Source: Candidatus Omnitrophota bacterium
GTDB lineage: Bacteria; Omnitrophota; Gorgyraeia; Pluralincolimonadales; Pluralincolimonadaceae
Length of the DNA: 47,125 bases
Reading direction: 5' to 3'
NCBI GenBank assembly: GCA_030695925.1
Contig: JAUYOH010000129.1
Coordinates: forward strand, 1 to 47,125
Shown: piece after piece, positions 13,681 through 45,652 of the stretch
Layout of the letters: each line of letters begins with the position of its first letter
How positions within the stretch are numbered: position 1 is the stretch's first letter
Notes under the pieces: generated by a model
Seen by the model: only the letters and a program-made list of their open reading frames with translations
What the model was told of the DNA's origin: nothing
The model's database searches: none
Translations under genes and position numbers: made by a program

Positions 13681-13683
13681 CCG

Positions 13684-14715
13684 CTACTCCATCTCGCTAA
13701 GATATTTCGCCGCGTCTTCGGGCGGGGTAGGATTGATATAGAACCCGCTTCCCCATTCAAAACCCGCGGTCTTTGTCAGCCTCGGCATTATCTCGAGATG
13801 CCAGTGAAAATCGTTATCTATCGTCCTCCAGTATCCGGCCCTTTGGACCCTAAAAGGCGCCGTATGCAGGATAATATTGTACGGGGGGTCCACTAGCGCT
13901 CTCTTCAGTTTTTGAAGCACCACCTTCAGCGTCCTCGCCAAGTCCGCTCTTTTATCCTTGGGTATATTAACGAAATCCGCGCTATGTTTTTTGGGGAGCA
14001 CCCACGTCTCAAACGGAAATCTGGAAGCAAAAGGGGCAAATGCCACAAAACCGTCTATATCGGCTATAATGCGTTTACCTGTATCCAACTCCTGCTTTAT
14101 GATATCGCAGAATATGCAGCGTTCCTTGAATTCGAAATACTGCCGCGCCCCGACCAGTTCATCCTTCAGCCTGATTGGATTGACGGGCATCGCTATCAAT
14201 TGTGAATGAGCGTGCCTTACCCTGCCGGAACCGGCGGCTAATCCGTAATTCTTAAATAAGAGTGCGTATTTAAAACGCGGGTCCCTGCCGAGGTCCGTTA
14301 TGCGCTCGATATAAACGTTGATGGCGCTGGTTATCTGCTCTTCCGGCAGGTCCGCTATATTATAAATATGCTGCGGGGTCTCGACGATTATCTCGTGGGC
14401 GCCTATGCCGTTTATTACATCGTACATACCCTTGCCGCGCCTCTCGACTTTTCCTTCTACCTTCAGGACAGGCGAAATCGAGGGAATCACTCTTATGTGC
14501 CATCCCGGCGTATTCGGTTTTGTCCCCGGGTCACGCACCGCGAATATCTCCGGAGGCGGGGTCTGGTCTTCCCTGCCGGCGCAGAAGGGGCATGGCGGCT
14601 CCGCCATCTTCTCTTCAGAGACGGAATGCGGTATAAAGTCCGTCGGCCGGCGCGCGCGTTCGGTCGCGACTATTACCCACCTTCCGATAATCGGGTCTTT
14701 TCTTAATTCCGGCAT
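13684..14715 (-). CDS. Galactose-1-phosphate uridylyltransferase family paralogue (HAH form)
   Basis: A 343-residue paralogue of the adjacent gene, similar from end to end (same LRKDPI.GRWVI start, CPFCAG cysteine pair at C42 and C45, MYDVINGIGAHEIIVETP, HWHLEIMPRL and AGFEWGSGFYINPTPPE). The active-site stretch reads RVRHAHSQLIAMP, so the middle proline of the usual HPH is alanine (H168-A169-H170); the nucleophilic second histidine is kept. It contains an extra segment near FRVQRAGYWRTIDNDF, before the HWH motif. The pair suggests duplication and divergence, perhaps to a different sugar phosphate or nucleotide. It lies 3 bases after the CBS-domain gene. Confidence 0.82.
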   Translation of the reverse strand: MPELRKDPIIGRWVIVATERARRPTDFIPHSVSEEKMAEPPCPFCAGREDQTPPPEIFAVRDPGTKPNTPGWHIRVIPSISPVLKVEGKVERRGKGMYDVINGIGAHEIIVETPQHIYNIADLPEEQITSAINVYIERITDLGRDPRFKYALLFKNYGLAAGSGRVRHAHSQLIAMPVNPIRLKDELVGARQYFEFKERCIFCDIIKQELDTGKRIIADIDGFVAFAPFASRFPFETWVLPKKHSADFVNIPKDKRADLARTLKVVLQKLKRALVDPPYNIILHTAPFRVQRAGYWRTIDNDFHWHLEIMPRLTKTAGFEWGSGFYINPTPPEDAAKYLSEME

Positions 14716-28067: not shown

Positions 28068-29483
28068 TTATTCGGATTGTATTTTTGCTGCTGCAAGGCC
28101 CGCAAAAGCCCAGAATAATACTGCGAGCGGCAGGGAATATAAATTTGTATCAAAAAAACTATGGACTAAATATGCCAAAATACCTCCGATGAGTCCTGTT
28201 AAAAAAGTTTTTAAAAATTTATCCCCACATTTTATCAACTTCGAGATCGCGTCTTTAATAAGGACAAAGGCGAACCAAAGAAAAATTAATAGTCCGACGA
28301 TGCCCGCCTCTGCGATTATCTGCAGATAGCAATTGTGCGCATATACTACCCAGGAATAATTCTGGGGCTTGTATCTGCTGAATACGTTCATAAACGTGCC
28401 TAGGCCATGGCCCAAAAGCGGCCTATCCTTAAACATCCTCCCTCCCGTTTCCCATATGACTATTCTATCTTCGGTAGAAGTATCGCCTGATAATGTTGCG
28501 AAAGATTTGAATTGATTTTTAATGATGGCGGGCGAAAATAAAACCAATATAATTAAAAATGCGACCGCTGTAAAAAGCGCCTTTTTGCCGCTAAATAAAC
28601 AAACGAAAAATAAACCTACTATAAAACCTAACCATGCCCCTCTTGCCCGGGTAAATAAAAGGCAGGCCAATAAAAGAATTGAAAGCGCAATTAAACAAAC
28701 TTTCACTTTTTTATTAGTCGTCCCCTGAATGATAAAACTGATAGCTATGGGAAGGATGGAGGTCAAATAACAACCCAAATTATTAGAAAATTGAAAAGAA
28801 GCGGTCATCTTGCCGGCGTAAAGGGGATACCCCCGCAGGAAATCAAATTTAGTAACCACTTGATAAATACCGTCCAGTCCGATCATAAAAGATGAGATAG
28901 ACAGCGCTATTAAAATATTAACTAAGCGCCTCCGCGTATTTATAACCTCGGCCATCATAAAAAATATTAGTAAATACTCAAGCGTCTTGAAGAAGAAGGC
29001 CCCCATACTGATATTGATATGTTGGCTGGTAAACATAGAAGTGATAATAGTTATGTCTAAGAATAAAAGAACGGGAATTTTCAGATTATGCTTTATATGT
29101 TGAGTGTAACGCAACGACATTATGATTATAGCTAAGACACTAACTGCTACAAAGCTGCTGATTAATGCTGTATGGAAAGATAACGGTGTTGCAATGCTGA
29201 GGTCCATATGCTGCGTAGAGAGCGTAGAACTTATAACCACGACCAAAGGAAAGAGTAATAAAAGGCTTATGATTATGGTGATACGTAAAAAAACCGATTC
29301 CCTCAAACCGGTCTTAAGCTGTTCGAAATTGTTTATTTTTTTGACTAACCAAGCGAGGGTCGCTATTGTCGCGCATATTTCAATCATGCTCTTTGAGGCA
29401 GGCAGAAAAAAAACAAGACAATAGAGCGAATACTCTATTATCTTTTCGCATATAATATCTATTTTTTCCCTGTTAATTTTCAC
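28068..29483 (-). CDS. O-antigen ligase-like membrane protein (WaaL/Wzy family)
   Basis: A 471-residue inner-membrane protein with about ten to twelve hydrophobic segments. The Wzy_C/O-antigen ligase region is visible at FTRARGAWLGFIVGLFFV, then the periplasmic loop with GRMFKDRPLLGHGLGTFMNVF and YAHNCYLQIIAEAGIVGLLIF, where the histidine of the AHN motif is the family's conserved residue. Such enzymes transfer a finished glycan from undecaprenyl diphosphate to lipid A-core, or polymerise it. Neighbours are the heptosyltransferases and a WecA-like fusion, in keeping with a ligase role. Overlap with the upstream gene is 4 bases (ATGA). Distinction between ligase and polymerase is not possible here. 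Confidence 0.85.
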   Translation of the reverse strand: MKINREKIDIICEKIIEYSLYCLVFFLPASKSMIEICATIATLAWLVKKINNFEQLKTGLRESVFLRITIIISLLLLFPLVVVISSTLSTQHMDLSIATPLSFHTALISSFVAVSVLAIIIMSLRYTQHIKHNLKIPVLLFLDITIITSMFTSQHINISMGAFFFKTLEYLLIFFMMAEVINTRRRLVNILIALSISSFMIGLDGIYQVVTKFDFLRGYPLYAGKMTASFQFSNNLGCYLTSILPIAISFIIQGTTNKKVKVCLIALSILLLACLLFTRARGAWLGFIVGLFFVCLFSGKKALFTAVAFLIILVLFSPAIIKNQFKSFATLSGDTSTEDRIVIWETGGRMFKDRPLLGHGLGTFMNVFSRYKPQNYSWVVYAHNCYLQIIAEAGIVGLLIFLWFAFVLIKDAISKLIKCGDKFLKTFLTGLIGGILAYLVHSFFDTNLYSLPLAVLFWAFAGLAAAKIQSE

Positions 29484-31273
29484 TTCCAGTAGACCCCGCC
29501 TATCTCACGGTATGCGACACCGCTTTCTTTGCAAATAGTCGCAATATTTTCAATCGTCTTTCTATCGACTGAGGGCATAGCAATAATAACTTCCTCTATC
29601 TGTCTGTCTTTGACCAAACCGGGGATATCTATCCTTGTCCCCAAAACAATAATACCCTGTATCCTGCGTCCTAACTTCGCTAAATCATCGTCAATAAATC
29701 CGATTGGCCGATAATTTAGTTCCCTGTTCTTTCTTATCTCCCTCAAGAACGCATCCCCCGCGTCTCCTGCGCCCACAATTAAAATTTTCTTGCCCCTGGT
29801 TTCAAAGGAAACAAATAGATGCTCTCTAAATAACCTGAAAGCAATTCTAGCGCCGGACATTAAAATAAGTAGAATCATCGCATCCAAAATGAAAATCATT
29901 CGGGAGAATCCTTTAAATCTAAATACGGCTAAGAGAGCCAAAACGGAGGCAACTGAGCCGATAAAAATACCTTTAGTTATATCCAATAACTCGCTTAACC
30001 CAGAATACCTCCAAATATTGCCATATACCCCAGCGACAAAAAAAGCGCTTAATTTAATAGCTATGATTATTGGCAATGACTTGGTTATCAGATCAAAATT
30101 ATCACTGCTAATTACACCCTCATAGCGAATTATATAGCTAGAGAGATAAGCCATGCATATCAAACATAAATCAAATATTATTTCAAAGATTACTCTCTTG
30201 TATCTTACCAGAGCATTAACTAGCGCTATCTCGTCTTTATAATATGGCACATCCTTATTTTCTTTTTCTTTTAAAGGTCCCTTCTTAAAAGAAGTAGATT
30301 GACTTAAAAATAACCCGAAAGCAAAGAAGGATATTAACAACAAAGTTATAATAACTACGCTTGTATAAATTTTTACAAAAAGTGAAGCTAGCGCGGCTAA
30401 CCCAAAAATCGCAGAAATTATATATAGGATTATAACGGCTTTTTTCTCTGGTAGGCCCAGAAAAACTAATCTGTGCGAGGTATGGTCTCTTCCTCCTTTA
30501 GCAATGGATTTCCCATCAATTTTTCGAGTGATCGCAACAAATGCCGTGTCAAATATGGGTACGGCAAGGGCAAGTACCGGCGTAAATAATACTATGAACA
30601 GATTGGAAGCTTCTTTCCAGGTTCCCTGTATAGTCAGACAGGCTAATGCGAAACCTATAAACATCGCCCCGCAATCACCCATAAAGATCTTAGCAGGATA
30701 AAAGTTATACGGCAAAAATCCTAACGTAGCCCCGGCTAAAATTAAAGAGGCGCCGGCAACTTCATAATTTTTAAGTATGAGTGAGCAGACAAATAAAGTC
30801 ATTGCGGCTATAACGGCTACACCGCTTGACAATCCATCCATATTATCTAACAGGTTAAAAGCATTGGCGATGCCGACTATCCACAAAATTGTCAAGGGAA
30901 TCGCCACAATAGGAAGGGGTATTATCTTTATGATTACACCGAATATTATTGCTAATGACGCGCATACAATCTGACCTATTATCTTATTCTGCGGATTTAA
31001 TCCTTTTATATCGTCTATTAAACCCAAAATAAATATTGAAGATGCTCCCACAATCAACCCGAGAGGAATAGAGTTTTTTGGTAAAAACATCAGGCATGAA
31101 ATCAAAAAGGAGGCATATATAGACAGGCCTCCCAGAAGCGGCACCACTTTTTGGTGCCAGCGGTCTTCCTTGGGCCTTGCTACGATTCCCAGTTTCGTAG
31201 CGATAATTTTAACAAGGGGGGTTAGTAGTACGGACAGCAAAAACGGGATTATAAAAAGGGCGAAATACTTCAC
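29480..31273 (-). CDS. Fusion: WecA/MraY-like GlcNAc-1-P transferase plus FlaA1-type CoA_binding_3 domain
   Basis: A 597-residue membrane protein. Residues 1-325 form a WecA/TagO/MraY domain: HQKVVPLLGGLSIYA, LGLIDDIKGLNP (D87, D88), NAFNLLDNMDGLSSG (D143, D146), KIFMGDCGAMFIGFAL and GGRDHTSHRL (histidine of the HxxxR loop), with ten or so hydrophobic segments. This half would start glycan synthesis on undecaprenyl phosphate. Residues 350-490 hold about four more transmembrane segments (RYKRVIFEIIFDLCLICMAYL, then KLSAFFVAGVYGNIWRY), and 495-597 form a CoA_binding_3/FlaA1 N-terminal Rossmann domain (KILIVGAGDAGDAFL, then EVIIAMPSVDRKT). The SDR catalytic domain (C-terminal half) of PglF/CapD-type dehydratases is absent. 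No stop or frameshift lies between the halves. Confidence 0.85.
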   Translation of the reverse strand: MKYFALFIIPFLLSVLLTPLVKIIATKLGIVARPKEDRWHQKVVPLLGGLSIYASFLISCLMFLPKNSIPLGLIVGASSIFILGLIDDIKGLNPQNKIIGQIVCASLAIIFGVIIKIIPLPIVAIPLTILWIVGIANAFNLLDNMDGLSSGVAVIAAMTLFVCSLILKNYEVAGASLILAGATLGFLPYNFYPAKIFMGDCGAMFIGFALACLTIQGTWKEASNLFIVLFTPVLALAVPIFDTAFVAITRKIDGKSIAKGGRDHTSHRLVFLGLPEKKAVIILYIISAIFGLAALASLFVKIYTSVVIITLLLISFFAFGLFLSQSTSFKKGPLKEKENKDVPYYKDEIALVNALVRYKRVIFEIIFDLCLICMAYLSSYIIRYEGVISSDNFDLITKSLPIIIAIKLSAFFVAGVYGNIWRYSGLSELLDITKGIFIGSVASVLALLAVFRFKGFSRMIFILDAMILLILMSGARIAFRLFREHLFVSFETRGKKILIVGAGDAGDAFLREIRKNRELNYRPIGFIDDDLAKLGRRIQGIIVLGTRIDIPGLVKDRQIEEVIIAMPSVDRKTIENIATICKESGVAYREIGGVYWK

Positions 31274-32235
31274 GGTTTTCCTTTAATATAATTTACCACG
31301 TCTTTAATAATTCCGTTTAAATCTACGGTAGGTATAAATCCGATCAAATCATTTATCTTGGAAATATCCGGGACCCTTCTTTCCATATCCTCAAACCCCT
31401 CTTCATACGCTTCGTTGTAAGGGATATAAATAACCTTTGAGCGGCTGCTCGTTATTTCTATTACTTTCTTGGCTAAGCCCTCGATCGTAATCTCCTCTTG
31501 GCTGCCGATATTAAAGACTTGGCCGCAAGCATTTGGCTTATCTATAAGTTTTGTCAAGGCGCTGACTACGTCTTTGACGTGCAAAAAACATCTTGATTGC
31601 TTGCCTGAACCATAAACGGTCATATCTTTACTTCCCAATGCCTGCTTGACAAATCTAGGCAAGACCATTCCATAGGCCGAAGATTGACGGGGGCCAACTG
31701 TATTAAATAACCTTACTATCACCGTTGGGAGATTTTTCTCTTTCCAATATACATAAGCCAGCATCTCATCTACTGCCTTCGCGGTAGAATAACTCCATCT
31801 TGATTTCAGGGGCGAGCCCAGGATCCTGTCTTGATCCTCCTTCAAGGGCCCTTGCGTGTTTTTACCGTAAATTTCAGAGGTAGAAGTAATAAGAACTTTC
31901 TTATGGTACCTATAAGCCATCTCTAAAATTATCTCGCTGCCTTTGATGTTGGTGGTCAGGGATTCCAAGGGGTGGTTTACTATTAATTCTACCCCTACAG
32001 CCGCGGCAAGATGAAATATGGCAGAGCATCTTTCCGTCAGCTTATCAACTAGATATTCATTTAAGATGGTGCCGACGACAAGTTCAAAATTCGGGTTGCC
32101 CTCTAAATGTTTGACGTTCTCATATTTGCCGGTTGACAGATCATCGAGCGCCGTAACCCGGTGCCCCTCACTGATAAGCTTATCTGCAAGATGAGAACCG
32201 ATAAATCCGGCTCCGCCAGTAATCAAATAATGCAC
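31270..32235 (-). CDS. NAD-dependent epimerase/dehydratase (UDP-sugar type)
   Basis: A 321-residue extended short-chain dehydrogenase/reductase. It shows the NAD-binding TGGAGFIGSHLADKL (7-20), DDLSTGKYEN, IFHLAAAVGVELIVNHP, the catalytic ITSTSEIYGKN and SYSTAKAVDE (Y149, K153), VIVRLFNTVGPRQ, and the sugar-nucleotide part GSGKQSRCFLHVKDVVSAL. Closest in pattern to UDP-glucuronate decarboxylase and UDP-glucose 4-epimerase; the choice between them is open. Start is GTG 32235 with AAGGAGA 8 bases upstream and a good promoter behind that. It overlaps the WecA-like fusion by 4 bases and supplies a modified sugar nucleotide to the pathway. Confidence 0.85.
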   Translation of the reverse strand: MHYLITGGAGFIGSHLADKLISEGHRVTALDDLSTGKYENVKHLEGNPNFELVVGTILNEYLVDKLTERCSAIFHLAAAVGVELIVNHPLESLTTNIKGSEIILEMAYRYHKKVLITSTSEIYGKNTQGPLKEDQDRILGSPLKSRWSYSTAKAVDEMLAYVYWKEKNLPTVIVRLFNTVGPRQSSAYGMVLPRFVKQALGSKDMTVYGSGKQSRCFLHVKDVVSALTKLIDKPNACGQVFNIGSQEEITIEGLAKKVIEITSSRSKVIYIPYNEAYEEGFEDMERRVPDISKINDLIGFIPTVDLNGIIKDVVNYIKGKP

Positions 32236-32299: not shown

Positions 32300-33478
32300 T
32301 TACTGAGGCGAGGCTGCCTCTTCATACAATTTTGTTATGTCTTCAACCAAACGTTTCTTTGAAAACTTTTCCCGAACCGTCTCTCGTCCTTTAGTGCCGA
32401 ACACGGACCTTTTATTGGGATCTTTGATTAAATCCGCCATGCGGTGCGCGAATGCTTGCGCATCCCCCGAGGTGACGCAATAACCATTTATACCGTCCTC
32501 TACTACATCGCTTACCCCGCCGACATTTGTAGCAACAACCGGCCTGCCTGCGGCAAGAGCCTCGATTAAGGCAACCGGCGTGCCTTCGTTAAGGGAAGTA
32601 AGAACCACTATGTCCAGATCAGAATAAACGTCTGCCATATTCTCCTGCCATCCGCAGAAGAGCACGTTTCCGCTTATGCCTAACTCTTTTGCATATACTT
32701 CCAGCTCTATCCGCTTCTCGCCATCCCCTATGATTAAACACTTAATTTTAAATTCATCGCCTAGGATAGATAATAAATGCTTAACCGCTTCGAGGAACAT
32801 TCTATGATTCTTTACGGGAACGAGTCTGCCGATGATACCGATCGCAATAGTGTCGTCGTCAATATTTAATCCCTTTCTTAATTTCCCGTTATGCGACTGA
32901 ATTAATGCGAACTTCTCTAGTTCCAACCCTAATGGAATTACTTTAATCTTATCCGGCCTGGCAACTTTATAATGCTCCCCCATTTCTCTTTTCTGTGCCT
33001 GACTTACAACGACGATATATTTACTGAAATATGCCAGTGCCTTTTCTATAAAAAGAAAAATGCTAATATAAAATCTGCTAAAATAGCTCTCGAATATATG
33101 ACCGTGAAAAGTATGTATCCTGACGGGAACACCGGCAAAAACAGCCGCGACTCTGCCTAACGCCCCTGCCTTAGCGGTATGGGTATGGACGATATCGGGT
33201 TTCTCGCGCCGTATTATCCTATAAATCTTCCAAAAAGCAATGAGGTCTCTTAAGGGGTGAATTTGACGGCCCAGCTCGGAAATGATCAGCGGATTTATCT
33301 GCTTTTCCCTGGCTAAATAAATCATGTCTTTTTCGGTTTTGTCAACTTGACCCGTTACCAAAACCGACTCGAAACGTTCGTTATTTAGGGCCTGCGTTAA
33401 AAGTATTGTATGAATGGCGGGACCGCCTACATTGAGTCGTGCTATGATCCTCAAAACTTTCAACTTCTTTTGAATCAT
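32300..33478 (-). CDS. Family 4 glycosyltransferase
   Basis: A 392-residue GT-B retaining glycosyltransferase. N-terminal domain: KVLRIIARLNVGGPAIHTIL, then IVHTHTAKAGALGRVAA. C-terminal donor domain: IGRLVPVKNHRMFLEAVKHL, CLIIGDGEKRIELE, GNVLFCGWQENMADVYSDL and LTSLNEGTPVALIEALAAGR with the E-x7-E pattern, ending VVATNVGGVSDVV. Length is normal for GT4 enzymes acting on EPS or O-antigen units. It overlaps the upstream hypothetical membrane protein by 4 bases. Donor and acceptor unknown. Confidence 0.87.
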   Translation of the reverse strand: MIQKKLKVLRIIARLNVGGPAIHTILLTQALNNERFESVLVTGQVDKTEKDMIYLAREKQINPLIISELGRQIHPLRDLIAFWKIYRIIRREKPDIVHTHTAKAGALGRVAAVFAGVPVRIHTFHGHIFESYFSRFYISIFLFIEKALAYFSKYIVVVSQAQKREMGEHYKVARPDKIKVIPLGLELEKFALIQSHNGKLRKGLNIDDDTIAIGIIGRLVPVKNHRMFLEAVKHLLSILGDEFKIKCLIIGDGEKRIELEVYAKELGISGNVLFCGWQENMADVYSDLDIVVLTSLNEGTPVALIEALAAGRPVVATNVGGVSDVVEDGINGYCVTSGDAQAFAHRMADLIKDPNKRSVFGTKGRETVREKFSKKRLVEDITKLYEEAASPQ

Positions 33479-33981
33479 CGGGACAAAATTTTTAATAGGC
33501 CGCTGCCTTTTTTAATGGCGGCCCAATTGGTATCGCAAAATAGACATAAAAATCCTACCGCAAACAAAACGGCCCTTATGCCCAATTCCAGCGCTTTTAT
33601 CTTATGTTGAAAAATATAAAACAAAACCAAGTTAATAATTACCGCTGAAATTAAAAGAATCCCGCTTGCCTTAAAAGGGCATAGGTTAAACTCTTTTTTA
33701 ATCTTCGTCGTACAGTTTCCTGTCAAGCTTACAGCTAAATAGTCTGCTGTTTCTTTTTGCAATTTCTTATATAAAGTAACCACCCAACATCCAATTTTGC
33801 TATTCTCTAAGATGCGAGGGTCTTCTTTTTCAATAAAGTCAACAAAATGGTTTACGGCACTGTATGAATAACTAAGGTGGTAGGTTCGCGTTATTTTATC
33901 TTCAATATAAAAATAAAATCCAGTTAACTTTTTGAATAAAAATATAATTAAACTCGCCACTAGTACCTCTTTTAATATCAT
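33475..33981 (-). CDS. Small hypothetical membrane protein
   Basis: A 168-residue protein with no family I recognise. Hydrophobic segments lie at about 1-17 (MILKEVLVASLIIFLFK), 106-125 (GILLISAVIINLVLFYIF) and 133-150 (LGIRAVLFAVGFLCLF). In between is a polar region (about 25-100) with YHLSYSYSAVNHFVDFIEKED. The gene overlaps both neighbours by 4 bases (the DUF4330 gene upstream and the GT4 gene downstream), so its product is likely made together with them and may form a membrane complex with the DUF4330 protein. No conserved catalytic motif is apparent. Confidence 0.65.
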   Translation of the reverse strand: MILKEVLVASLIIFLFKKLTGFYFYIEDKITRTYHLSYSYSAVNHFVDFIEKEDPRILENSKIGCWVVTLYKKLQKETADYLAVSLTGNCTTKIKKEFNLCPFKASGILLISAVIINLVLFYIFQHKIKALELGIRAVLFAVGFLCLFCDTNWAAIKKGSGLLKILSR

Positions 33982-34853
33982 TTTAAGCGCTCCTCGTCTT
34001 TTTCAGATTGAAAATTACCAGACGAGTCATTAGGATTATTGCTTTTCATATTTTCGTATGGTTTTGATAAAAATCCTTTTACCTTATATTTATTTGTCAC
34101 AAACTCTATGGGTAAATTATATGTTAACGGTTTGCCCTTAAAGTAAATCTCGCCTGATAGCTCTTGACATTTTAATATCATCTCTATATTGATTTGTTGC
34201 TTACCGACGATTTTCCCTATGGTAAAATTTCCCCTGTTTAACTCAAATTCTCGAAAACTCTCCGTAGGTGTACCAACCATTACGATTTCAGCTATCGTCT
34301 TGCCCTCGGCATCTGTTTCCTTATCCCCTATTTTTATTAAGGCGGTTACATCCGCATTGAGGTCCTTTAAGGTGATCTTAACCCTTATCATCCTGGTTAA
34401 TTCTTCGTTTATTATTACAACCGCCGTATATTTCTTCGTCTTAAAAAGTAACTCCGAATAGGCATCAACTAAATCACCCTTATAAAACAAATCGCTCCCT
34501 CTAAATTCTATCCTTAACTTTAGGAGGGCCTGGCGCTGTTTTAGTGAGGCGTATTTTTCATATGGCTCGATTTCCCCGAGTTCCATTATTTGTCCTATAA
34601 CGGCTCCTTGCGCATTTAATTCCCTGTCGTAAACAGACATCTTCGTCGCCACATCGGGTTTTAATTTTACCATTTCGCAATTCAAATATACATCTTTAAC
34701 CCTGTCTCCAAGCGACTCTGGTTGTTGTATAATAATTATTTTATACCCGAAATACATGAGCGGAGGTACAAGGCAAATAAAAAAGAAAAGCGCTATAAAA
34801 TCAATTACATTAATTATGCCGAACAAGCGGCCTTTTTCGTCAACGTATTTCAT
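33978..34853 (-). CDS. DUF4330-like membrane-anchored protein
   Basis: A 291-residue protein. It starts VDEKGRLFGIINVIDFIALFF, the hallmark of the DUF4330 family, and has one transmembrane segment (about 17-43). The remaining ~240 residues are polar and probably extracytoplasmic, with beta-rich repeats of about 90 residues (for example VYLNCEMVKLKPDVATKM, then GSDLFYKGDLVDAYSELLF and QINIEMILKCQELSG). No enzymatic motif. The start has GGGAGG 9 bases upstream. The family has no established function; its members are found next to glycosyltransferase genes in several lineages. Overlaps the small membrane protein by 4 bases. Confidence 0.7.
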   Translation of the reverse strand: MKYVDEKGRLFGIINVIDFIALFFFICLVPPLMYFGYKIIIIQQPESLGDRVKDVYLNCEMVKLKPDVATKMSVYDRELNAQGAVIGQIMELGEIEPYEKYASLKQRQALLKLRIEFRGSDLFYKGDLVDAYSELLFKTKKYTAVVIINEELTRMIRVKITLKDLNADVTALIKIGDKETDAEGKTIAEIVMVGTPTESFREFELNRGNFTIGKIVGKQQINIEMILKCQELSGEIYFKGKPLTYNLPIEFVTNKYKVKGFLSKPYENMKSNNPNDSSGNFQSEKDEERLK

Positions 34854-34875: not shown

Positions 34876-36750
34876 TTAAATATAACCCTTTAACCAATAA
34901 TAACATATCGCCGTATATTCATGAATTATCGCTCTTATCTGCTCCAAATTTATCTGCTTCCATATCCTTCTACCTTTATCATCGACGCCGCCGTGTTGAT
35001 AAAACTGATTATTTGCAACAGAAGAATAAATAACGTCTTTGTCAGGGGCTATCTTTCTAAAAACAAGCGATGCCCTCCGCATATGATAGGGAGAACTAAT
35101 TAAGATGATCTTCTTCCATCCTCTTTCGCTTAGTATTCTACTACTAAACTTCACATTTTCATAGGTACTTGCCGCCCTGTCTTCAAAGATAATTGCATCG
35201 GAAGGCACACCCAGAGATACAGCCAGCACCTTCATAACATACGGTTCGGGAAAAGTGCTTTGGGCGCCGGAAGAAAAGATAAGGTTCTTGGCAAAACCTT
35301 TCTTATATAATTCCACTGCATAATCTACCCTTTCTTCATAACCTTGACCCGCTTGGCCGGTCTCCCCTACCCCTCCCGCAAAAACAACTATCGCATCGGT
35401 GAGTTGCGGTTTTTGCGTTAATTTCAATGGCTCCGCCAAATACCATATAATTGGAGTATAAAAAATTGCTACCCACAGAAAAACTAAAATGGATGCCGTT
35501 TTAAGTGCCCTCTTCCTTGACTTTTTATATATCCCTACAAATCTCTCCTGCCATTTTGTCGGAATATCATAATTTTTATTTGAAATCTCCTTTTCCATTA
35601 TACTGCTCATCTCTTCAATTCTATTGCTCCAACTGTTGCTTCTTGCGGCGCTAATCCTTGCATTAATTGATTCTTTATCGGTTTTAGCGCTTAAGGCGCT
35701 TTTAATCTTTTCGGGGAAATCAGCTGAATCTCCGGCGATCAAAACAAGACCATCCTTATCGGATTTTATGACTTCGGGTAAAAAGGTGGAGACAACCGGT
35801 TTGCCCATGATGTGGTATTCATTTACTTTTGTCGGGTAAACCGTTTCGGTATACTCTGTCAGTAAATACGGTACGATACCTACATCAAATTGGTTTACAT
35901 AAGAAGGCAATTGCGAAAAATCTTTTTTCCCAAGCAGGTATATATTTTTCAAATCTCTGATTTGCGATATATCGGTCTGTTCCGGTCCGATCATAACAAT
36001 CGACCACTCAGGATGCTTTATGGCCATATCCTTTATTAAATCGAAGTCAATGTGACGATGCAAACCGCCGATATAGCCTATGACCGGATGGCGAATCCCC
36101 GCCAAATCCTTTGGAATATCGCAATGGTTGTGCTTTTTGAAATTTTCAAAGACATCTATGTTAACGCCAAAAGGGAATATAAACACATTTTTGTTAAATT
36201 TAAGGCATTTTTCCTTGAAATACTGTCCCTGTACGAATATAATATCGCACTCCTTTATAAGTTTCTCTTCTGTTTTTCTTAATTTAATGTGATTTTTAAC
36301 TAGATTGTCAAAATCTGCAATATAATAATAAATTAACACCTTCGCATTAACGCTATGGATTATATCCAACGCTATTCCCGTAGGTAGAAAAGTCCAAACA
36401 ATTGGATTATCAAATCGCATCACCTTCATCCATTGGTTAAGGGCTTTTAACATCAGATATTTATTAACCCACCTTGCGATTCTTGAATAGGGGAACGGTA
36501 AAATCAAAGGAGAATAGATATAAAGATTTTCCGTTTCCTTCCTGAAACCCTTAATACTGTTAAGCCAATTGACGATCCTTTTTCGTATCCTTGGAATATC
36601 CCTGAGAGTAGGCGACCTTATGCCTGTGTTCTCGATAAAGAGCACGCGATTGCCGTTTTTGGCAAAGGTTGACATTATCTCCTGATGCCCCTGCCAGATA
36701 AAATCCCAGTCTATTGACGATATGCAAATTATATTTTCATTCTTTAACAT
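34876..36750 (-). CDS. Fusion: glycosyltransferase plus membrane-anchored DUF218 (YdcF/SanA-like) domain
   Basis: A 624-residue protein of two parts. Residues 1-400 resemble a GT4/TuaH-type glycosyltransferase: IICISSIDWDFIWQGHQEIM, VIGYIGGLHRHIDFDLI (222-238), then QFDVGIVPYLLTEYTETVYPTKVNEYHIMGKPVVS (donor-binding ending) with E311. A transmembrane segment follows at about 417-438 (TASILVFLWVAIFYTPIIWY). Residues 452-612 form a DUF218 domain: DAIVVFAGGVGETGQ, LIFSSGAQS, then EDRAASTYENVKFS and IILISSPYHMRRASLVF. The frame is open throughout, so the fusion is real on this read. DUF218 proteins act in the periplasm on envelope polymers, but their chemistry is mostly unknown. Confidence 0.82.
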   Translation of the reverse strand: MLKNENIICISSIDWDFIWQGHQEIMSTFAKNGNRVLFIENTGIRSPTLRDIPRIRKRIVNWLNSIKGFRKETENLYIYSPLILPFPYSRIARWVNKYLMLKALNQWMKVMRFDNPIVWTFLPTGIALDIIHSVNAKVLIYYYIADFDNLVKNHIKLRKTEEKLIKECDIIFVQGQYFKEKCLKFNKNVFIFPFGVNIDVFENFKKHNHCDIPKDLAGIRHPVIGYIGGLHRHIDFDLIKDMAIKHPEWSIVMIGPEQTDISQIRDLKNIYLLGKKDFSQLPSYVNQFDVGIVPYLLTEYTETVYPTKVNEYHIMGKPVVSTFLPEVIKSDKDGLVLIAGDSADFPEKIKSALSAKTDKESINARISAARSNSWSNRIEEMSSIMEKEISNKNYDIPTKWQERFVGIYKKSRKRALKTASILVFLWVAIFYTPIIWYLAEPLKLTQKPQLTDAIVVFAGGVGETGQAGQGYEERVDYAVELYKKGFAKNLIFSSGAQSTFPEPYVMKVLAVSLGVPSDAIIFEDRAASTYENVKFSSRILSERGWKKIILISSPYHMRRASLVFRKIAPDKDVIYSSVANNQFYQHGGVDDKGRRIWKQINLEQIRAIIHEYTAICYYWLKGYI

Positions 36751-36754
36751 TTTT

Positions 36755-37507
36755 TTAACATATTAAAAAATCTACCCAGTTATAAGCTCCTCTTGTTTTC
36801 ATTTTAAAACGAAACATATTATCGTTAGTATAGATTCGTATGCGTCTTAAATCGTATGGATCAGTATCCTTTGTATTAAAACCCATGATATTCGAATAGG
36901 CCTTTTCATAGCCGGACTCTTTAACGATTTTTTTTATTGCGCTATTATAGGATCGTTTGGATCCATACGGGTATGCGAAATATTTTATTTTCTTGCCTAT
37001 AATTGCCTCAGTTCTTTCTTTCGAGCCGGCTATCTCACTTTTTGCTGTATTGCTATCCACAGCCAAAAGATCCGGATGGCTTAAGCTGTGCGATCCAATT
37101 TCTATGCCGTTATTCGATATCTCCTTGATTTGCTCCCAACTCAAAGGTCTAATTTCAACGTTAGCGGGGCAAAAATCAGAAAGTGAAATTTTTTTATCTA
37201 CAAAATCTACCGCGATAAACAAAATTGATTTTATATTATAGCGCAAAAGTACAGGATAGGCATTAGTAAAAAAATTTTCAAAACCATCGTCAAAAGTAAC
37301 CAAAAACTCTCTTTTTTGTCGCAGTCCGGCAAGATAGGCCATATGTTTTTTAAATAACTCCGTGGATATGTTCAAGTTAAAAGAATCCTGTTTACTGTTC
37401 ATCCCGGAAATGGAATGATAAAGCAAAACACTTTCTTTACTCTGGGGGATGAGAAAAGACAGAATATAAAAAAATATACTTATTAAATCTTTCAAAAACT
37501 GAGTCAC
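36755..37507 (-). CDS. Polysaccharide deacetylase (NodB family)
   Basis: A 250-residue carbohydrate esterase of family 4. It has an N-terminal hydrophobic segment (about 7-20, DLISIFFYILSFLIP), VLLYHSISG, the metal-binding FLVTFDDGFENFF (D73, D74), SILFIAVDFVD, and the histidine motif IEIGSHSLSHPDLLAV (H140, H144). The aspartate and both histidines are intact, so it should be active against N-acetyl groups in a surface glycan. Start is GTG 37507, as no ATG is better placed. It lies 4 bases from each neighbour. In EPS loci with exosortase a comparable deacetylase is standard, but none of the exosortase genes is seen here. Confidence 0.87.
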   Translation of the reverse strand: MTQFLKDLISIFFYILSFLIPQSKESVLLYHSISGMNSKQDSFNLNISTELFKKHMAYLAGLRQKREFLVTFDDGFENFFTNAYPVLLRYNIKSILFIAVDFVDKKISLSDFCPANVEIRPLSWEQIKEISNNGIEIGSHSLSHPDLLAVDSNTAKSEIAGSKERTEAIIGKKIKYFAYPYGSKRSYNSAIKKIVKESGYEKAYSNIMGFNTKDTDPYDLRRIRIYTNDNMFRFKMKTRGAYNWVDFLIC

Positions 37508-37511
37508 TTTT

Positions 37512-38675
37512 TTACCCGTTAGATGGCGTCTGTTTTCTTTTATATAGCCGCCAGAGATAAACAGCGAATTTAAATTTACGGCAAAACGGCAAAAGCTTAA
37601 GCATATAAAACATGCTTAATCTTGTTCTCGCCTTCACCAAATAACCCATCAATCCTTTCCCTTCTGAAAAAATAAAAAAGGTACGTAAATTTGAGAGATC
37701 GCATCGCCACTGTAGCTTATAAGGTTCCTTCCCAATACCAAAATCAAAAATCCTATAATTTTCTTCTACGCAGTATTCGGTCAGTTTATAAAGCAATATC
37801 TTTCCGGGAGAATAATTAGCATAATTTATATCATAAGAGGGCGAGAGATATACAAACCTTCCGTTAAACATCAGAGCAAAACAGGTAGCGATCGGTCTGG
37901 AACCAAGCAAAAGGAAAAATACATTGGCAATTCTGCGATCAAAAAAATCTGCCAGTAAATCTTTCGCGAACTCCTTTCTCTTTCCGAATTTGTAAGCACT
38001 ATATCCTTTGGCGGATTCCCATCTTTCTGTATGCTGTAAAAAAAATATATCTATCATCTGCAAGGCCTTTTCTAAACTATCGCACCGCTCTAGCGTCAAC
38101 TTTCCCTGAGCGCCCAGATGCCTTATCTGTCGGAAAATGTCGTTTCTGAGACTTTTTTTCATTACAGAACGTAACGCCTCTTTAGAATTAGGCAGCCTCA
38201 GAACGGGTACGACATCTTCTGAATATCCCCATCCATTAATTCTGTTCTCTTTAAGCGCAAAAGATAAATACCTGCAGCTTGCAGAGTCCTCTAAGATATT
38301 CCTAGCTACAAACCTAAAGGGTTGGTAATTCTTATTCAGATAGATTTGAACTTCTTTAACGACTTTCTCTTCTTCGCCCTTCTTTATCAAAAAATCAGTA
38401 TAATCGTAAATATCCGAGCCGACAAAACTAAACATATTATAATTGGCCGGTTTCAGTTTCTTTCTTTTCAGGGGAAGCAACCCGACAAGCTCAGAATTAT
38501 CATATGCCGCAAAAATACACAGTTCTTCATTATGCCCTGAAAAGTGCTTCCAGCATTTTTTTACCCAGTCATAACGCTGGAAGACAAGAGGCTCATATGA
38601 TAAATCAAGCAAATTATTCCATTTTTCTTCCAGAAAGGGATCCTGAAAATCACGAATCAATTCAATCCTTATCAT
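37512..38675 (-). CDS. GNAT-type acyltransferase (CelD/BioF2-like, FemAB-related)
   Basis: A 387-residue protein with a double-GNAT layout. The N-terminal half has LVFQRYDWVKKCWKHF and LPLKRKK; the C-terminal half has the Acetyltransf_6 (CelD) core IANVFFLLLGSRPIATCFALMF, FVYLSPSYDINYANYSPGKILLY and FDFGIGKEPYKLQWRCD. This is the pattern of the CelD/BioF2 and FemAB-like acyltransferases that occur in exopolysaccharide loci. A basic C-terminal tail (FRLLKLLPF-like, ending KRKQTPSNG) may contact the membrane. It overlaps the next upstream gene by 14 bases. Substrate unknown; acylation of a glycan amino group is plausible. Confidence 0.8.
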   Translation of the reverse strand: MIRIELIRDFQDPFLEEKWNNLLDLSYEPLVFQRYDWVKKCWKHFSGHNEELCIFAAYDNSELVGLLPLKRKKLKPANYNMFSFVGSDIYDYTDFLIKKGEEEKVVKEVQIYLNKNYQPFRFVARNILEDSASCRYLSFALKENRINGWGYSEDVVPVLRLPNSKEALRSVMKKSLRNDIFRQIRHLGAQGKLTLERCDSLEKALQMIDIFFLQHTERWESAKGYSAYKFGKRKEFAKDLLADFFDRRIANVFFLLLGSRPIATCFALMFNGRFVYLSPSYDINYANYSPGKILLYKLTEYCVEENYRIFDFGIGKEPYKLQWRCDLSNLRTFFIFSEGKGLMGYLVKARTRLSMFYMLKLLPFCRKFKFAVYLWRLYKRKQTPSNG

Positions 38676-41442: not shown

Positions 41443-42961
41443 CTTTAAGGCCTTCTCTTAGTTTCCTGTTAAAAGCATGCAGGCGCATATCGTCATAGGT
41501 CGAGCGAAGATACTGTGCCGCCCTGGGAGCAATCCCGTACATAAGATACAAAGCTTCCTTTATAAGATGTTTTAAGAGGATATCTACTAACAAGCTATAG
41601 TCGCGGGCTTTCCAGGCAAAGCGTACTTTAAGCCTGGACTGCATTAAATTAACTTCTCCCCAGAGTTTGGTTCCAGAACTAAATTCTGAAAAATTTAGCG
41701 GATAATTACCGAAACTAATATTTAGTACATAGTCATGTATCCCTTCTTTTTTTAAAAGTCCTTTTTCAATAGCATATTTAAATAAAGGCGCGCCCGGATA
41801 TGCTACGGCCAAATTAACAGCGTAGTCCCGAGGATCCAGCGTCTCCATGATAAATTTTTCAGTTTCTCTTAATGTCTTTTTATTCTCCCCCGGAGAACCA
41901 AATATAAAATTACAAGTTGCCATTATTCCGGCATCTTTTACAAGTTTAATGGCGGCGTAATTCTGTTCAACAGTTACCTGCTTATGGAGATTATTAAGAA
42001 TTGTCTGACTGCCAGACTCAATGCCACATCCAAATCTTAAAAAACCTGCTTTTTTAGCATGACTTATGATCTCCGGAGTTAGCAGATTTGCCCTGCCTGA
42101 ACCGGAGAAAACATAAAGGCCGGGAATTTTATCTCCTAAGGCATCGCAAAATTCTAAAAACCAACCTTTGTCAGCGACTACTAGTTCGTCGAGAAGACTT
42201 ATACCTGAACAACCGTATCTTTCCTTGACCGTTTTAAGATGCGCGATTGCATTATCAATTGTGGGGTGACGGTATTTCTTGATTAGGCGGTAACAAAAAG
42301 AGCAGGAATACGGGCAGCCTCTGGTTATAGTAACAGGGAAAAATCTCACCGCAGGGCCGACCTTCTTATGTAGTTCCGGATAGAGCTTTAAAAACCGATA
42401 AGCATTCTTCGTGCTTGACTCGATATAATAATCCATGTCATATAAATCATATGCTGGAAAGGAAACATTAGAAATATCCGGATAAGATTGTTCAACTGCC
42501 GGCGGACTGAAGCCTTTGCCGGCTCTTACAAAAAGACCGGGTATATCGCCGCGGTCTAACCTCTGGCCAGAGGAAAGTCTTGAGATAAGTTCGGTTATTG
42601 CATTTTCCCCCTCGCCTTTAATTAGATAATCTACCTCTGTATATTTTTCAATAAGATCTGTGGCGCAGGTAATGCCGCCGCCAACCACAAGCGGTACTTT
42701 TGGAAAATATTTTTTTAAAAGCGCCGCTAATGGCTCAAAATAATAGTAAGAAGTAATTATGCCACTTAGGCCGATCAGATCCGGTTTGGTCATATCTATC
42801 TCTTTTACGATATCTTCATTTAAATGGCGATATCTAATGACATCGATAAGGTCCACCTCATGCCCCAAGTCACGCGCCTTCTGTGCAATAGCTATTGCGC
42901 CTAAATTAGGCAATTGATTGCCAATACTTTTTATCGGTAGCGCAATTAAGGTAAATTTCAT
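41426..42961 (-). CDS. B12-binding domain radical SAM protein
   Basis: A 511-residue protein. Residues 1-140 form a cobalamin-binding Rossmann-like domain (LGAIAIAQKARDLGHEVDLID, then DLIGLSGIITSY, VPLVVGGGITCATD and VDYLIKGEGENAI); the histidine ligand of the DxHxxG motif is absent, as in most class B enzymes. The radical SAM core follows with TRGCPYSCSFCYR (C216, C220 and C223), ISLLDELVVADKGW, CGIESGSQTILNNLHKQ and FIFGSPGENKKT. Typical reactions of the class are methylation of unactivated carbons, ring contraction or hydrocarbon rearrangement. It overlaps the flippase by 4 bases and is probably coupled to it. Substrate unknown. Confidence 0.87.
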   Translation of the reverse strand: MKFTLIALPIKSIGNQLPNLGAIAIAQKARDLGHEVDLIDVIRYRHLNEDIVKEIDMTKPDLIGLSGIITSYYYFEPLAALLKKYFPKVPLVVGGGITCATDLIEKYTEVDYLIKGEGENAITELISRLSSGQRLDRGDIPGLFVRAGKGFSPPAVEQSYPDISNVSFPAYDLYDMDYYIESSTKNAYRFLKLYPELHKKVGPAVRFFPVTITRGCPYSCSFCYRLIKKYRHPTIDNAIAHLKTVKERYGCSGISLLDELVVADKGWFLEFCDALGDKIPGLYVFSGSGRANLLTPEIISHAKKAGFLRFGCGIESGSQTILNNLHKQVTVEQNYAAIKLVKDAGIMATCNFIFGSPGENKKTLRETEKFIMETLDPRDYAVNLAVAYPGAPLFKYAIEKGLLKKEGIHDYVLNISFGNYPLNFSEFSSGTKLWGEVNLMQSRLKVRFAWKARDYSLLVDILLKHLIKEALYLMYGIAPRAAQYLRSTYDDMRLHAFNRKLREGLKDDSKK

Positions 42962-44250
42962 GACAACCTTTCCCTCTTAATTTTCATAAAATAAAACCAC
43001 GGCATAGGATAAGCTCTCTGCACAAAAAACCATACCAGCAACATATTTACTAAATATGAAATTAGAGTTGATTGGGCAGCGCCCATGGGACCGTTGGCTT
43101 TAATCAAAATATAATTTAATATTAAATTAATCGCACCCGCGGCCATGATTGAATAAATTAAGTAATAGGTTTTTTTTGAATAGGAAATATACAAAGAGAA
43201 TACTCTAAACATCGCATTTGCGAAATACGCAAAAGAAATCAATGGAATATACCTCGAGGCTTCTTCAAAACCCTTGCCGATAAAAATCTTGCAAAAAATC
43301 GGAGCAATATAAATCCAGATTAAGGTAACAAAAAATAAAGCAAAAAAATACAGATAAGTACACTTGACTATCAATAATTTTTGTGCCTCTGAAGGATTTT
43401 TTAATTTCTCAAAAAGGATGGGCATAACGGCGAGTCCTACTCCGCCTGCGATAAACTCAACTACCGAGGCCATAGAATAACCTACGCTGTAACTGCCTGT
43501 TGCAGAAACACTTACCATAACATTCAAAAACAATCTATCGGAAAGAGTTATAACCCATCGACCTACGCCATATAAAAATAGCGGCATACCAAACACTAAC
43601 ATCTCTTTTATAAGATCAGGCTTTATCGCATATTTTAATAAACTCTTGCGTATCAAAAATGCCGCGCATAGCAACATAAATATTATCTCAGTTACTGCTA
43701 TTCCCAAAACTCTGCCCTTCCAGCTTAAGCCTATTACTACAACAAGCAAAAGCGATAAAATGATATTAAGGATAGTCCTGCTGCATTGAAAGAGACTGTA
43801 TGCGTAAGCTTTTTTCTGAACTACCAACAACTTTACGATTATATCGATAAATGCGCTGGCAAAAGCTACGCCGGGAATTGTAATAATAAGCCAAACGGGA
43901 AAATTAAATTTTTCAATCAACCAACTGCGCAAAAAAACCAGCGCAGCTAAAAATATAACCAAAAATGATAATTTAACGATTATGGAGTTAAAAATATACT
44001 GGCCAAAATTTAATGGCGCATCTTTTGTATCAAAATACTGTCTTGATATCGCGGCGGATGAGCCCATATCAATAAAAGATTCTCCCATAGGATAGATAGT
44101 CTGAAATGTAGCTAAGATCCCATAATGGAATGGCGTCAAAAATCGTGTTAAAACCGGGAGCATTAAGAAAGAAACCGCCTGATTAAAAATGCTTGCTCCT
44201 GCATATATTCCTGATGGACGAATAATTTTCTTTAAGACAGTATAAAACAT
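42958..44250 (-). CDS. Wzx-type polysaccharide flippase (MOP superfamily)
   Basis: An inner-membrane protein of 430 residues from the chosen start (MFYTVLKKIIRPSGIYAG), with about 12-14 hydrophobic segments. Typical features are IFNQAVSFLMLPVLTRFLTP near the N-terminus, DMGSSAAISRQYF, and FGMPLFLYGVGRWVITLSDR in the middle. Such proteins flip undecaprenyl-linked glycan units across the membrane. Longer forms begin at ATG 44262 or TTG 44295, but these overlap the upstream gene by 11 or 44 bases; ATG 44250 sits one base after that gene's stop codon. It is placed between two B12-binding radical SAM genes, so the flipped glycan is probably their substrate or shares their pathway. Confidence 0.85.
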   Translation of the reverse strand: MFYTVLKKIIRPSGIYAGASIFNQAVSFLMLPVLTRFLTPFHYGILATFQTIYPMGESFIDMGSSAAISRQYFDTKDAPLNFGQYIFNSIIVKLSFLVIFLAALVFLRSWLIEKFNFPVWLIITIPGVAFASAFIDIIVKLLVVQKKAYAYSLFQCSRTILNIILSLLLVVVIGLSWKGRVLGIAVTEIIFMLLCAAFLIRKSLLKYAIKPDLIKEMLVFGMPLFLYGVGRWVITLSDRLFLNVMVSVSATGSYSVGYSMASVVEFIAGGVGLAVMPILFEKLKNPSEAQKLLIVKCTYLYFFALFFVTLIWIYIAPIFCKIFIGKGFEEASRYIPLISFAYFANAMFRVFSLYISYSKKTYYLIYSIMAAGAINLILNYILIKANGPMGAAQSTLISYLVNMLLVWFFVQRAYPMPWFYFMKIKRERLS

Positions 44251-44251
44251 A

Positions 44252-45652
44252 TTAGCCGGCATCGGATGCTTTAGGCGCTGCTTTACAATGACCAACCTTT
44301 ATCAATTTATCTTCTGGGATATTAAAACCTAATTTCTTATTAATTTTGCCTAAATATTCCCTGATTAGAAATTTGAACCTCTCAGATGGAACATTTGTCA
44401 GATTTAACCTTAAATCTTGCCTATCTCCCATACTTAATAAATACTCTTCTTCATCAGCGATTAATCTTTTATCAATAATATACTGATACATAGGCGACCC
44501 GGGTTGTGGAAGCAAATAGCCTACGCTGGGATAAATGTTGTTCTCGTAGCAGAACCCCATAGTCTCCCTTATGGTTTCTTCCGTTTCTTCAGGATAACCA
44601 AAAACCAAACTAGTCCAAGTAACTATACCAGCTTTGTCTAATATCTTTTTCTGTCTGAGAAAATCTTCTGTCTTAATAAATTTATTCATTGACTTTAAAA
44701 TATCCTCATTGGCTGATTCTAAAGAATAACCCAGTCCAACGCATCCTGATTTTTTTATTTTTTTTACTAATTCGAGGTTGTCCTCTTTAAATAAATCCGC
44801 TCTACATGAAGCTGTCCAATAAATATCCAGATCTTCTTCTATGATCTTATCTATTAATTCTTCTGCTTGTTTTTTTGCAAAAAAAGTTAACTCGTCCCAA
44901 AAGTTAATATAATTTATTCCATATAATTTTTTTAGTTCCTTGATTTCTTTTATAACAGACGAGGGTGAGCGCCAACGATATCGATTTTCTCTAAAAACAT
45001 GGTAGCAAAAAGTGCATTTATAAACACAACCTCTCGCTGTATTTACGGGAAATACCTTGATTTCCTTTTTTGGAATAGGATATGGTTCGCTGACAAAATT
45101 CTTGGATTCACGCACATAAACATCCGTCTCAAATAAATCCCATTTCGGCAAAGGTATGGTATCTAGATTAGCTATGGGCGGCCTTGGTTTATTGGCTATG
45201 ATCTTATTGTTACTTTTAAAATAGATCCCTTCTACTTCATCCAGCGGCTTCTTTCTCTCAATGCATTTAAGTAAATCGACTATAGTAACATCACCTTCTC
45301 CTATAACTGCTATATCGGCCTCCGTTTTTGAAAGTAATAACTGAGGTATCGACGCAGCAACTGAATTTCCCACAATGATGATAGCATTTTTATTAATTCT
45401 CTTAATCATTGAACAAAGATTTTTAACGACCTTATATCCGGTTACAATACAGCCAAAACCTACAACATCAAAGTCTTTTTTTCTTAAAACTCCCTCTAAT
45501 TCTTCATCAGAATATCTATGAATATCTACATCTACTATATCCAAGCTATAACCCGCTGTATAAATTGCGCTGGCTACATACCCAAGCCCTACCGGATATA
45601 TCTTCTTAGAGGTATCGCGCCTTATGCATAAATTTATCAATAGAACTTTCAT
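44252..45652 (-). CDS. B12-binding domain radical SAM protein
   Basis: A 466-residue enzyme. The N-terminal domain (1-140) has the B12-binding pattern PVGLGYVASAIYTAGYSLDIVD and FDVVGFGCIVTGYK, IIIVGNSVAASIP and ADIAVIGEGD. The radical SAM motif is NTARGCVYKCTFCYH (C209, C213 and C216), followed by INFWDELTFFAKKQ, LGYSLESANEDILKSMNK and LVFGYPEETEETIRE. The last ~80 residues have a C-terminal extension with a cysteine in VGHCKAAP. It has an ATG start 1 base after the next rSAM stop codon. Its partner relation to the two other B12-rSAM genes nearby suggests sequential modification of one substrate. Confidence 0.86.
   Translation of the reverse strand: MKVLLINLCIRRDTSKKIYPVGLGYVASAIYTAGYSLDIVDVDIHRYSDEELEGVLRKKDFDVVGFGCIVTGYKVVKNLCSMIKRINKNAIIIVGNSVAASIPQLLLSKTEADIAVIGEGDVTIVDLLKCIERKKPLDEVEGIYFKSNNKIIANKPRPPIANLDTIPLPKWDLFETDVYVRESKNFVSEPYPIPKKEIKVFPVNTARGCVYKCTFCYHVFRENRYRWRSPSSVIKEIKELKKLYGINYINFWDELTFFAKKQAEELIDKIIEEDLDIYWTASCRADLFKEDNLELVKKIKKSGCVGLGYSLESANEDILKSMNKFIKTEDFLRQKKILDKAGIVTWTSLVFGYPEETEETIRETMGFCYENNIYPSVGYLLPQPGSPMYQYIIDKRLIADEEEYLLSMGDRQDLRLNLTNVPSERFKFLIREYLGKINKKLGFNIPEDKLIKVGHCKAAPKASDAG

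What the first reader, a model, noticed from the sequence alone, without database searches (positions are those of the whole stretch)
34876..36750. Cytoplasmic glycosyltransferase fused through one membrane span to a periplasmic DUF218 domain
A GT4/TuaH-like enzyme (1-400), a transmembrane helix (417-438) and a DUF218 (YdcF/SanA-like) domain (452-612) are in one frame. The predicted topology puts the transferase inside and the DUF218 domain outside, so one protein would link glycan assembly with an unknown periplasmic step. Fusions of this type could reveal what DUF218 domains do.
Basis: partly seen in the sequence, partly recalled or inferred. Interest (0 to 1): 0.6.

Follow-up and report, generated by a model that had tools for sequence, protein, structure and literature searches.

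The report
Glycosyltransferase fused to periplasmic DUF218 domain
This gene encodes one protein that appears to straddle the bacterial inner membrane, with a sugar-adding enzyme inside and a poorly understood DUF218 domain outside, and the pairing is shared by many uncultured bacteria, so it offers a handle on what DUF218 proteins do.

Summary
The fusion is real. On the minus strand (36750..34876), one 624-aa frame holds a GT4/TuaH-like glycosyltransferase (1-~392), one membrane helix (~417-439) and a DUF218 domain (452-613; Pfam E 1.3e-28). It is no assembly accident. I aligned 65 full-length members (607-629 aa) from Omnitrophota, Acidobacteriota, Nitrospinota, Rokubacteria and other MAGs; the GT-to-DUF218 segment is 48-51 residues in all of them. 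Net charge is more positive before the helix than after it in 64/65 (one tie), so GT inside and DUF218 outside is well supported. The residues corresponding to SanA's E/T/H triad are mostly kept, so the DUF218 domain is probably active. In trees the fused DUF218s form one clade apart from standalone ones, which suggests one origin followed by spread. Two exceptions inform. In L087 the GT persists without helix or DUF218. In L126 the protein is split into adjacent overlapping genes, the second keeping a decayed GT remnant before helix and DUF218. Genes around it are for lipid-linked envelope glycan assembly. Best reading (inferred): a two-sided enzyme of a Wzx/Wzy-type pathway, with DUF218 processing or controlling the flipped lipid-linked glycan. 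I found no published description of this architecture.

The parts
34876..36750 (-). whole fusion gene, 624 aa: GT4 glycosyltransferase + one TM helix + DUF218
35575..36750 (-). GT4/TuaH-like glycosyltransferase, residues 1-392 (GT-B fold); motifs SSIDWDFxWQGHQ (11-23), GGxH (228-231), PTKxxEY (306-312) invariant or nearly so
35500..35574 (-). linker with basic stretch KKSRKRALK (residues 393-417), part of a long helix 374-431 in the model
35434..35502 (-). single transmembrane helix, about residues 417-439, with the conserved TPLxWxxAxPL segment at its C-terminal end
34912..35397 (-). DUF218 domain, residues 452-613, predicted periplasmic
35245..35247 (-). E502, aligned with the Glu of the SanA E/T/H set (57 E, 8 D of 65)
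35164..35166 (-). T529, putative catalytic Thr (61 of 65)
35083..35085 (-). H556, putative catalytic His (55 H, 9 N of 65)
36755..37507 (-). upstream neighbour: polysaccharide deacetylase
37512..38675 (-). upstream neighbour: GNAT domain of the FemAB-like type (Acetyltransf_6)
33978..34853 (-). downstream neighbour: DUF4330 protein, recurrent directly after the fusion in Omnitrophota
33475..33981 (-). downstream neighbour: 168-aa protein without a family, recurrent at +2
32300..33478 (-). downstream neighbour: GT4 glycosyltransferase (stp2-like)
31270..32235 (-). downstream neighbour: NAD-dependent sugar epimerase/dehydratase
29480..31273 (-). downstream neighbour: WecA-like polyprenyl-phosphate sugar-1-P transferase fused to a CoA_binding_3 domain
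28068..29483 (-). cluster gene: Wzy_C (O-antigen ligase/polymerase family)
42958..44295 (-). cluster gene: Wzx-type flippase (Polysacc_synt)

Best explanation
A bitopic inner-membrane enzyme of an undecaprenyl-PP-linked (Wzx/Wzy-type) envelope-glycan pathway. The cytoplasmic GT4 domain adds a sugar to the growing lipid-linked glycan (inferred from family and gene context). One helix fixes the enzyme in the membrane (predicted). The periplasmic DUF218 domain, using the Glu/Thr/His residues shared with SanA, acts on the same lipid-linked glycan or carrier after flipping: it releases, hands on or turns over the intermediate and so matches supply to use, as ElyC and SanA are proposed to do for ECA and peptidoglycan (inferred by homology and fusion logic; chemistry not shown). 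The architecture and in/out topology are close to certain (about 0.9); a role in a polyprenyl-linked envelope glycan is likely (about 0.7); a catalytic DUF218 acting on the lipid-linked glycan is plausible (about 0.35-0.4).
For: Fusion conserved in 65 aligned members with a 48-51 residue joint. GT and DUF218 distances correlate (r = 0.65; largest of 500 shuffles 0.17). Charge bias N>C in 64/65. Both halves keep core residues: GT D14 W15 D16 W19 Q20, GG228-229, K308, E311; DUF218 G460 G462 E463 R559 E611 in 65/65, T529 in 61/65. The SanA T/H/E triad is needed for function and its DUF218 domain works in the periplasm (PMC12176290). ElyC controls phosphoglyceride-linked ECA and affects Und-P availability (PMC8609368, PMC3879167). 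Neighbours: WecA-like transferase, Wzx, Wzy_C, GT4s, deacetylase, amidotransferase; 55 of 63 loci with a fusion have at least one of the recurring families. When the protein came apart in L126 the halves stayed adjacent and overlapping.
Against: No substrate or activity is shown for any DUF218 protein in the papers read. L087 keeps the GT in the same gene order without helix or DUF218, and no DUF218 was found in its genome, so the periplasmic step is dispensable there. H556 is Asn in 9 of 65 members, which weakens a strict catalytic triad. ElyC is interpreted by its authors as a regulator, not an enzyme. Flanks of 6 kb often miss Wzx and Wzy, which were seen in only about 5 loci each.
Confidence: 0.5

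Rival explanations
1. The DUF218 domain is a non-catalytic periplasmic sensor: it binds a periplasmic glycan and signals through the helix to switch the cytoplasmic glycosyltransferase on or off, as ElyC is proposed to sense cyclic ECA.
For: The ElyC authors favour a sensing model (PMC8609368). The model shows one continuous helix from the GT (374) into the membrane (431), a possible signal path. H556 is Asn in 9 of 65. Loss of DUF218 in L087 leaves an intact GT.
Against: T529, E/D502 and R559 are conserved to a degree usual for catalysis. The corresponding triad of SanA cannot be replaced by Ala (PMC12176290). In L126 the DUF218 half is on a separate chain with a decayed GT remnant, so a rigid signalling helix to the active GT is not available there.
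Confidence: 0.25
2. The two domains are fused only for co-expression or membrane anchoring: the helix and DUF218 half serve to hold a soluble GT at the membrane, and DUF218 acts in an unrelated envelope process.
For: GT-only relatives without a C-terminal helix exist (L087, L140-L144, L149). GT4 enzymes often bind membranes without a helix (general knowledge).
Against: Anchoring alone would not preserve DUF218 active-site residues over many phyla, the fixed 48-51 residue joint, or adjacency after the split.
Confidence: 0.2
3. Both domains are on the cytoplasmic side, the hydrophobic segment being a membrane-surface or re-entrant helix.
For: The hydropathy peak is below 1.6 in 11 of 65 members. 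YdcF, a DUF218 protein, is predicted cytoplasmic (PMC3879167).
Against: The segment is 19+ residues with a basic N-flank and near-neutral C-flank in 64/65. The one-helix periplasmic topology is the same as in SanA (PMC12176290).
Confidence: 0.05

Closest known systems
SanA (E. coli)
   Same: one membrane helix followed by a periplasmic DUF218 domain; E/T/H residues align with E502/T529/H556
   Different: no glycosyltransferase half; about 19% identity in the alignment; affects peptidoglycan; falls outside the fused clade
ElyC (E. coli)
   Same: periplasmic DUF218 domain linked to the fate of a Und-PP-linked glycan; weak NCBIfam match (E 1.3e-5)
   Different: two helices, no GT, about 25% identity; far below the family cut-off (24.8 vs 205 bits)
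YdcF (E. coli, PDB 3ca8)
   Same: only solved DUF218 relative found; profile match E 0.0033 over model positions 499-569
   Different: predicted cytoplasmic, SAM-binding, no GT or helix; lacks the SanA His at the aligned place
TuaH (teichuronic acid GT)
   Same: same GT4 subfamily over residues 157-383 (E 9e-38)
   Different: no helix or DUF218 in the family model; 130 bits against a 550-bit equivalog cut-off
TuaH-like GT fused to UDP-galactopyranose mutase (Sinorhizobium meliloti, CP050559)
   Same: related GT (about 30% identity) fused to a second enzyme of glycan synthesis
   Different: partner is a cytoplasmic sugar mutase; the window genome has no Glf

Membership tests
DUF218 (PF02698) | Pfam score over the curated cut-off across the whole domain | tested here: met
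   100 bits vs 27.6, positions 1-132 of 133
DUF218 (PF02698) | fold like YdcF (adenine nucleotide alpha hydrolase-like alpha/beta) | tested here: inconclusive
   sequence profile finds 3ca8 (E 0.0033); the domain model's best Foldseek hits are argininosuccinate synthases and universal stress proteins with low TM-scores (0.41-0.44), and 3ca8 is not among the top 50
SanA-type periplasmic DUF218 | one helix, positive-inside, directly before DUF218 | tested here: met
   prediction only
SanA-type periplasmic DUF218 | conserved Thr/His/Glu set | tested here: met
   E502 57E/8D, T529 61/65, H556 55/65
SanA-type periplasmic DUF218 | groups with SanA in a tree | tested here: not met
   fused DUF218s form their own clade (97 percent SH-aLRT, quick tree), SanA and ElyC outside on long branches
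TuaH equivalog (NF047676) | score over the equivalog cut-off | tested here: not met
   130 vs 550 bits
GT4 family GT-B glycosyltransferase | Pfam Glyco_trans_1_4 over cut-off and GT-B fold | tested here: met
   46.7 vs 27 bits; Foldseek hits MshA, BshA, PimA, GumK
GT4 family GT-B glycosyltransferase | sugar transfer to a polyprenyl-PP-linked acceptor | not testable with these tools
   inferred from neighbours only
Exosortase/PEP-CTERM-associated EPS system | co-occurrence of the fusion with exosortase in genomes | tested here: not met
   15 of 40 genomes with the fusion vs 79 of 245 without have exosortase; Fisher p = 0.59

The most novel reading that the evidence does not exclude
DUF218 is a periplasmic enzyme of lipid-linked glycans, and this protein is a trans-membrane bifunctional enzyme whose two active sites act on the same lipid-linked glycan on opposite faces of the membrane, one before and one after flipping; the fusion would then reveal the general substrate class of the DUF218 family.
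Probability: 0.3. Interest if true: 0.75.

Novelty: new variant of a known kind. Interest (0 to 1): 0.5.

Why it matters
DUF218 proteins are widespread and their biochemical activity is unknown; ElyC and SanA tie them to lipid-carrier use in E. coli. A fixed GT-helix-DUF218 protein kept across many phyla says that in these bacteria the DUF218 step belongs to the same pathway as a specific GT, so the substrate search narrows to that GT's lipid-linked product. The natural split (L126) and loss (L087) give ready comparisons.

Tried and rejected
Exosortase/PEP-CTERM system: the genome has one exosortase on another contig, but across 285 Omnitrophota the two do not co-occur beyond chance. UDP-Galf as donor (from the Glf fusions of rhizobial relatives): no Glf in the window genome, so not supported. 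Solved homologue of the whole protein: none at E 0.01. Foldseek of the whole model returned GT-B enzymes only in the top 50; of the DUF218 domain alone, only weak hits. Literature: no paper with TuaH and DUF218 or exosortase and DUF218; nine papers hold DUF218 and glycosyltransferase, of which I searched three by term and judged the rest by title; none of the passages seen describes this fusion. Plasmids: only GT-part relatives, none covering 80 percent of the query. The careful GT tree did not finish; the quick tree was used and several GT-only rows have long branches.

Full report
OBSERVATION. The finding lies on the minus strand: ATG at 36750, stop at 34876, 624 codons without interruption. 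Pfam gives Glyco_trans_1_4 at 222-353 and DUF218 at 452-613 (E 1.3e-28), both over their cut-offs. NCBIfam gives TuaH (E 9e-38, residues 157-383, far below the equivalog cut-off) and a weak ElyC match. The single hydrophobic segment peaks at 421-439 and is preceded by KKSRKRALK at 409-417.

IS IT MORE THAN CHANCE. The same full-length architecture is in 28 of 59 relative genomes, counting those cut by contig ends. In the GTDB species collection 78 loci encode a relative. I aligned 64 full-length ones plus the window: lengths 607-629 aa, 37-65 percent identity to the window. Record titles name Omnitrophota, Acidobacteriota, Rokubacteria, Methylomirabilota, Nitrospinota, Chloroflexi, Bdellovibrionota (Oligoflexia), Woeseiaceae and others; nearly all are metagenome-assembled genomes, and some titles may reflect misbinned contigs. 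In 285 sampled Omnitrophota genomes, 40 hold the fusion (one of them spread over two contig ends) and one holds the split pair. In 199 genomes of the phylum of an acidobacterial member, 6 do. Of the 75 Omnitrophota genomes with DUF218 over the cut-off, 40 have it in this fusion.

ANATOMY. Residues 390-440 span 48-51 residues in every member. GT motifs SSIDWDFxWQGHQ, GGxH and PTKxxEY are invariant or nearly so; in DUF218, G460, G462, E463, R559 and E611 are 65/65. Aligned with E. coli SanA, ElyC and YdcF, the Thr/His/Glu set that is essential in SanA (PMC12176290) corresponds to T529 (61/65), H556 (55 His, 9 Asn) and E502 (57 Glu, 8 Asp); the paper does not number the residues in the passage read, so this correspondence rests on my alignment. 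AlphaFold2 gives mean pLDDT 90.4 with a long helix 374-431 leading from the GT into the membrane. Foldseek places the GT with MshA, BshA, PimA and GumK. The DUF218 model alone (pLDDT 88.5) has only weak hits, to argininosuccinate synthases and universal stress proteins, in line with the published description of the YdcF fold as adenine nucleotide alpha hydrolase-like; a profile of the family finds YdcF by sequence (E 0.0033).

TOPOLOGY. Net charge in the flank before the helix exceeds that after it in 64 of 65 members, one tie, none reversed (means +4.5 and +0.1); the linker peak is the most hydrophobic stretch of the protein in 63 of 65. This supports GT inside and DUF218 outside, the topology of SanA. 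It is prediction, not experiment.

HISTORY. In a quick tree of DUF218 domains, 47 fused domains and the one from the split locus form one clade (SH-aLRT 97) apart from Omnitrophota standalone DUF218s, ElyC and SanA. GT and DUF218 pairwise distances correlate (r 0.65 against at most 0.17 in 500 shuffles). This fits one fusion event followed by vertical and probably horizontal spread; the GT tree (quick) mixes phyla. Two exceptions help. L087 (Omnitrophota): a GT with 61 percent identity in the same gene order (DUF4330, small protein, GT4, epimerase, WecA-like, Wzy_C), a 402-aa gene without helix or DUF218, and no DUF218 found in that genome; the tree nests it among fused relatives in an 11-row set with 99 percent support, so this looks like a loss. 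L126 (Omnitrophota, G256): an intact GT gene is followed, with overlapping ends, by a gene whose first ~190 residues look like a decayed GT remnant (weak N-domain match at 78-118, no C-domain) joined to the helix and a full DUF218; this looks like duplication and complementary loss after fusion.

SURROUNDINGS. In the window the gene sits between a polysaccharide deacetylase and a FemAB-like acyltransferase upstream and DUF4330, a 168-aa protein, a GT4, an epimerase, a WecA-like transferase, a Wzy_C protein and heptosyltransferase-family genes downstream; a Wzx-type flippase lies further upstream. Across 63 loci with the fusion, recurring neighbours are a GT4 (26), asparagine-synthase-like amidotransferase (24), epimerase (19), WecA-like transferase (17), deacetylase (14) and DUF4330 (14); 55 have at least one of the recurring families. 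Acidobacterial clusters can hold a second DUF218 gene (L145, L147, L148), and standalone Omnitrophota DUF218 genes sit among sugar-nucleotide and GT genes in L127 and L130, though less clearly in L128, L129 and L131. Exosortase is not linked.

HOW IT PROBABLY WORKS. Shown by sequence: a conserved two-domain protein with one predicted helix and conserved active-site-like residues in both halves. Inferred: the GT adds a sugar to an undecaprenyl-PP-linked intermediate inside; after flipping, the DUF218 domain acts outside on the same lipid-linked glycan, to release, hand on or turn it over. This follows from the roles of ElyC in phosphoglyceride-linked ECA and of SanA in peptidoglycan supply, neither of which has a known reaction in the papers read. 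The main rival is a periplasmic sensor controlling the GT; L126, where DUF218 is on a separate chain, speaks mildly against signalling through a rigid helix.

VERDICT. It is a new variant of known kinds (GT4 plus SanA-type DUF218), not a new kind. It narrows the DUF218 question to the product of one GT and suggests simple tests.

Noticed in passing
L153 (G036:C16), also G181:C8, G108:C6 and others: DUF218 domains occur inside giant open frames of Omnitrophota (about 18,000-22,400 codons); the part read in L153 has TPR repeats next to DUF218.
   Followed up: partly
L150:837-2837: A 666-aa Omnitrophota protein joins an HD domain to DUF218, a second unrelated DUF218 fusion.
   Followed up: no
L151:2164-6213: A frame of at least 1350 aa combines DUF218 with Metallophos and a 2H-phosphodiesterase-like domain.
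   Followed up: no
L155:2950-5301 (Sinorhizobium meliloti CP050559): A TuaH-like GT is fused to UDP-galactopyranose mutase; it is annotated only as glf.
   Followed up: partly
L156:808-3117 and L158:2103-4460: Omnitrophota frames of 769 and 785 aa carry two GT4-like domains in one chain.
   Followed up: partly
L134:4258-7252 (G044): A GT-only paralogue (390 aa) directly precedes and overlaps the fusion gene, as a tandem pair.
   Followed up: partly
window 33475-34853: DUF4330 and a 168-aa family-less protein recur at +1 and +2 after the fusion in Omnitrophota; their function in the pathway is unknown.
   Followed up: partly
window 12682-14715: Two adjacent genes both match galactose-1-phosphate uridylyltransferase families.
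   Followed up: no
G000:C144:4288-5052: The window's genome has one exosortase, on another contig.
   Followed up: yes
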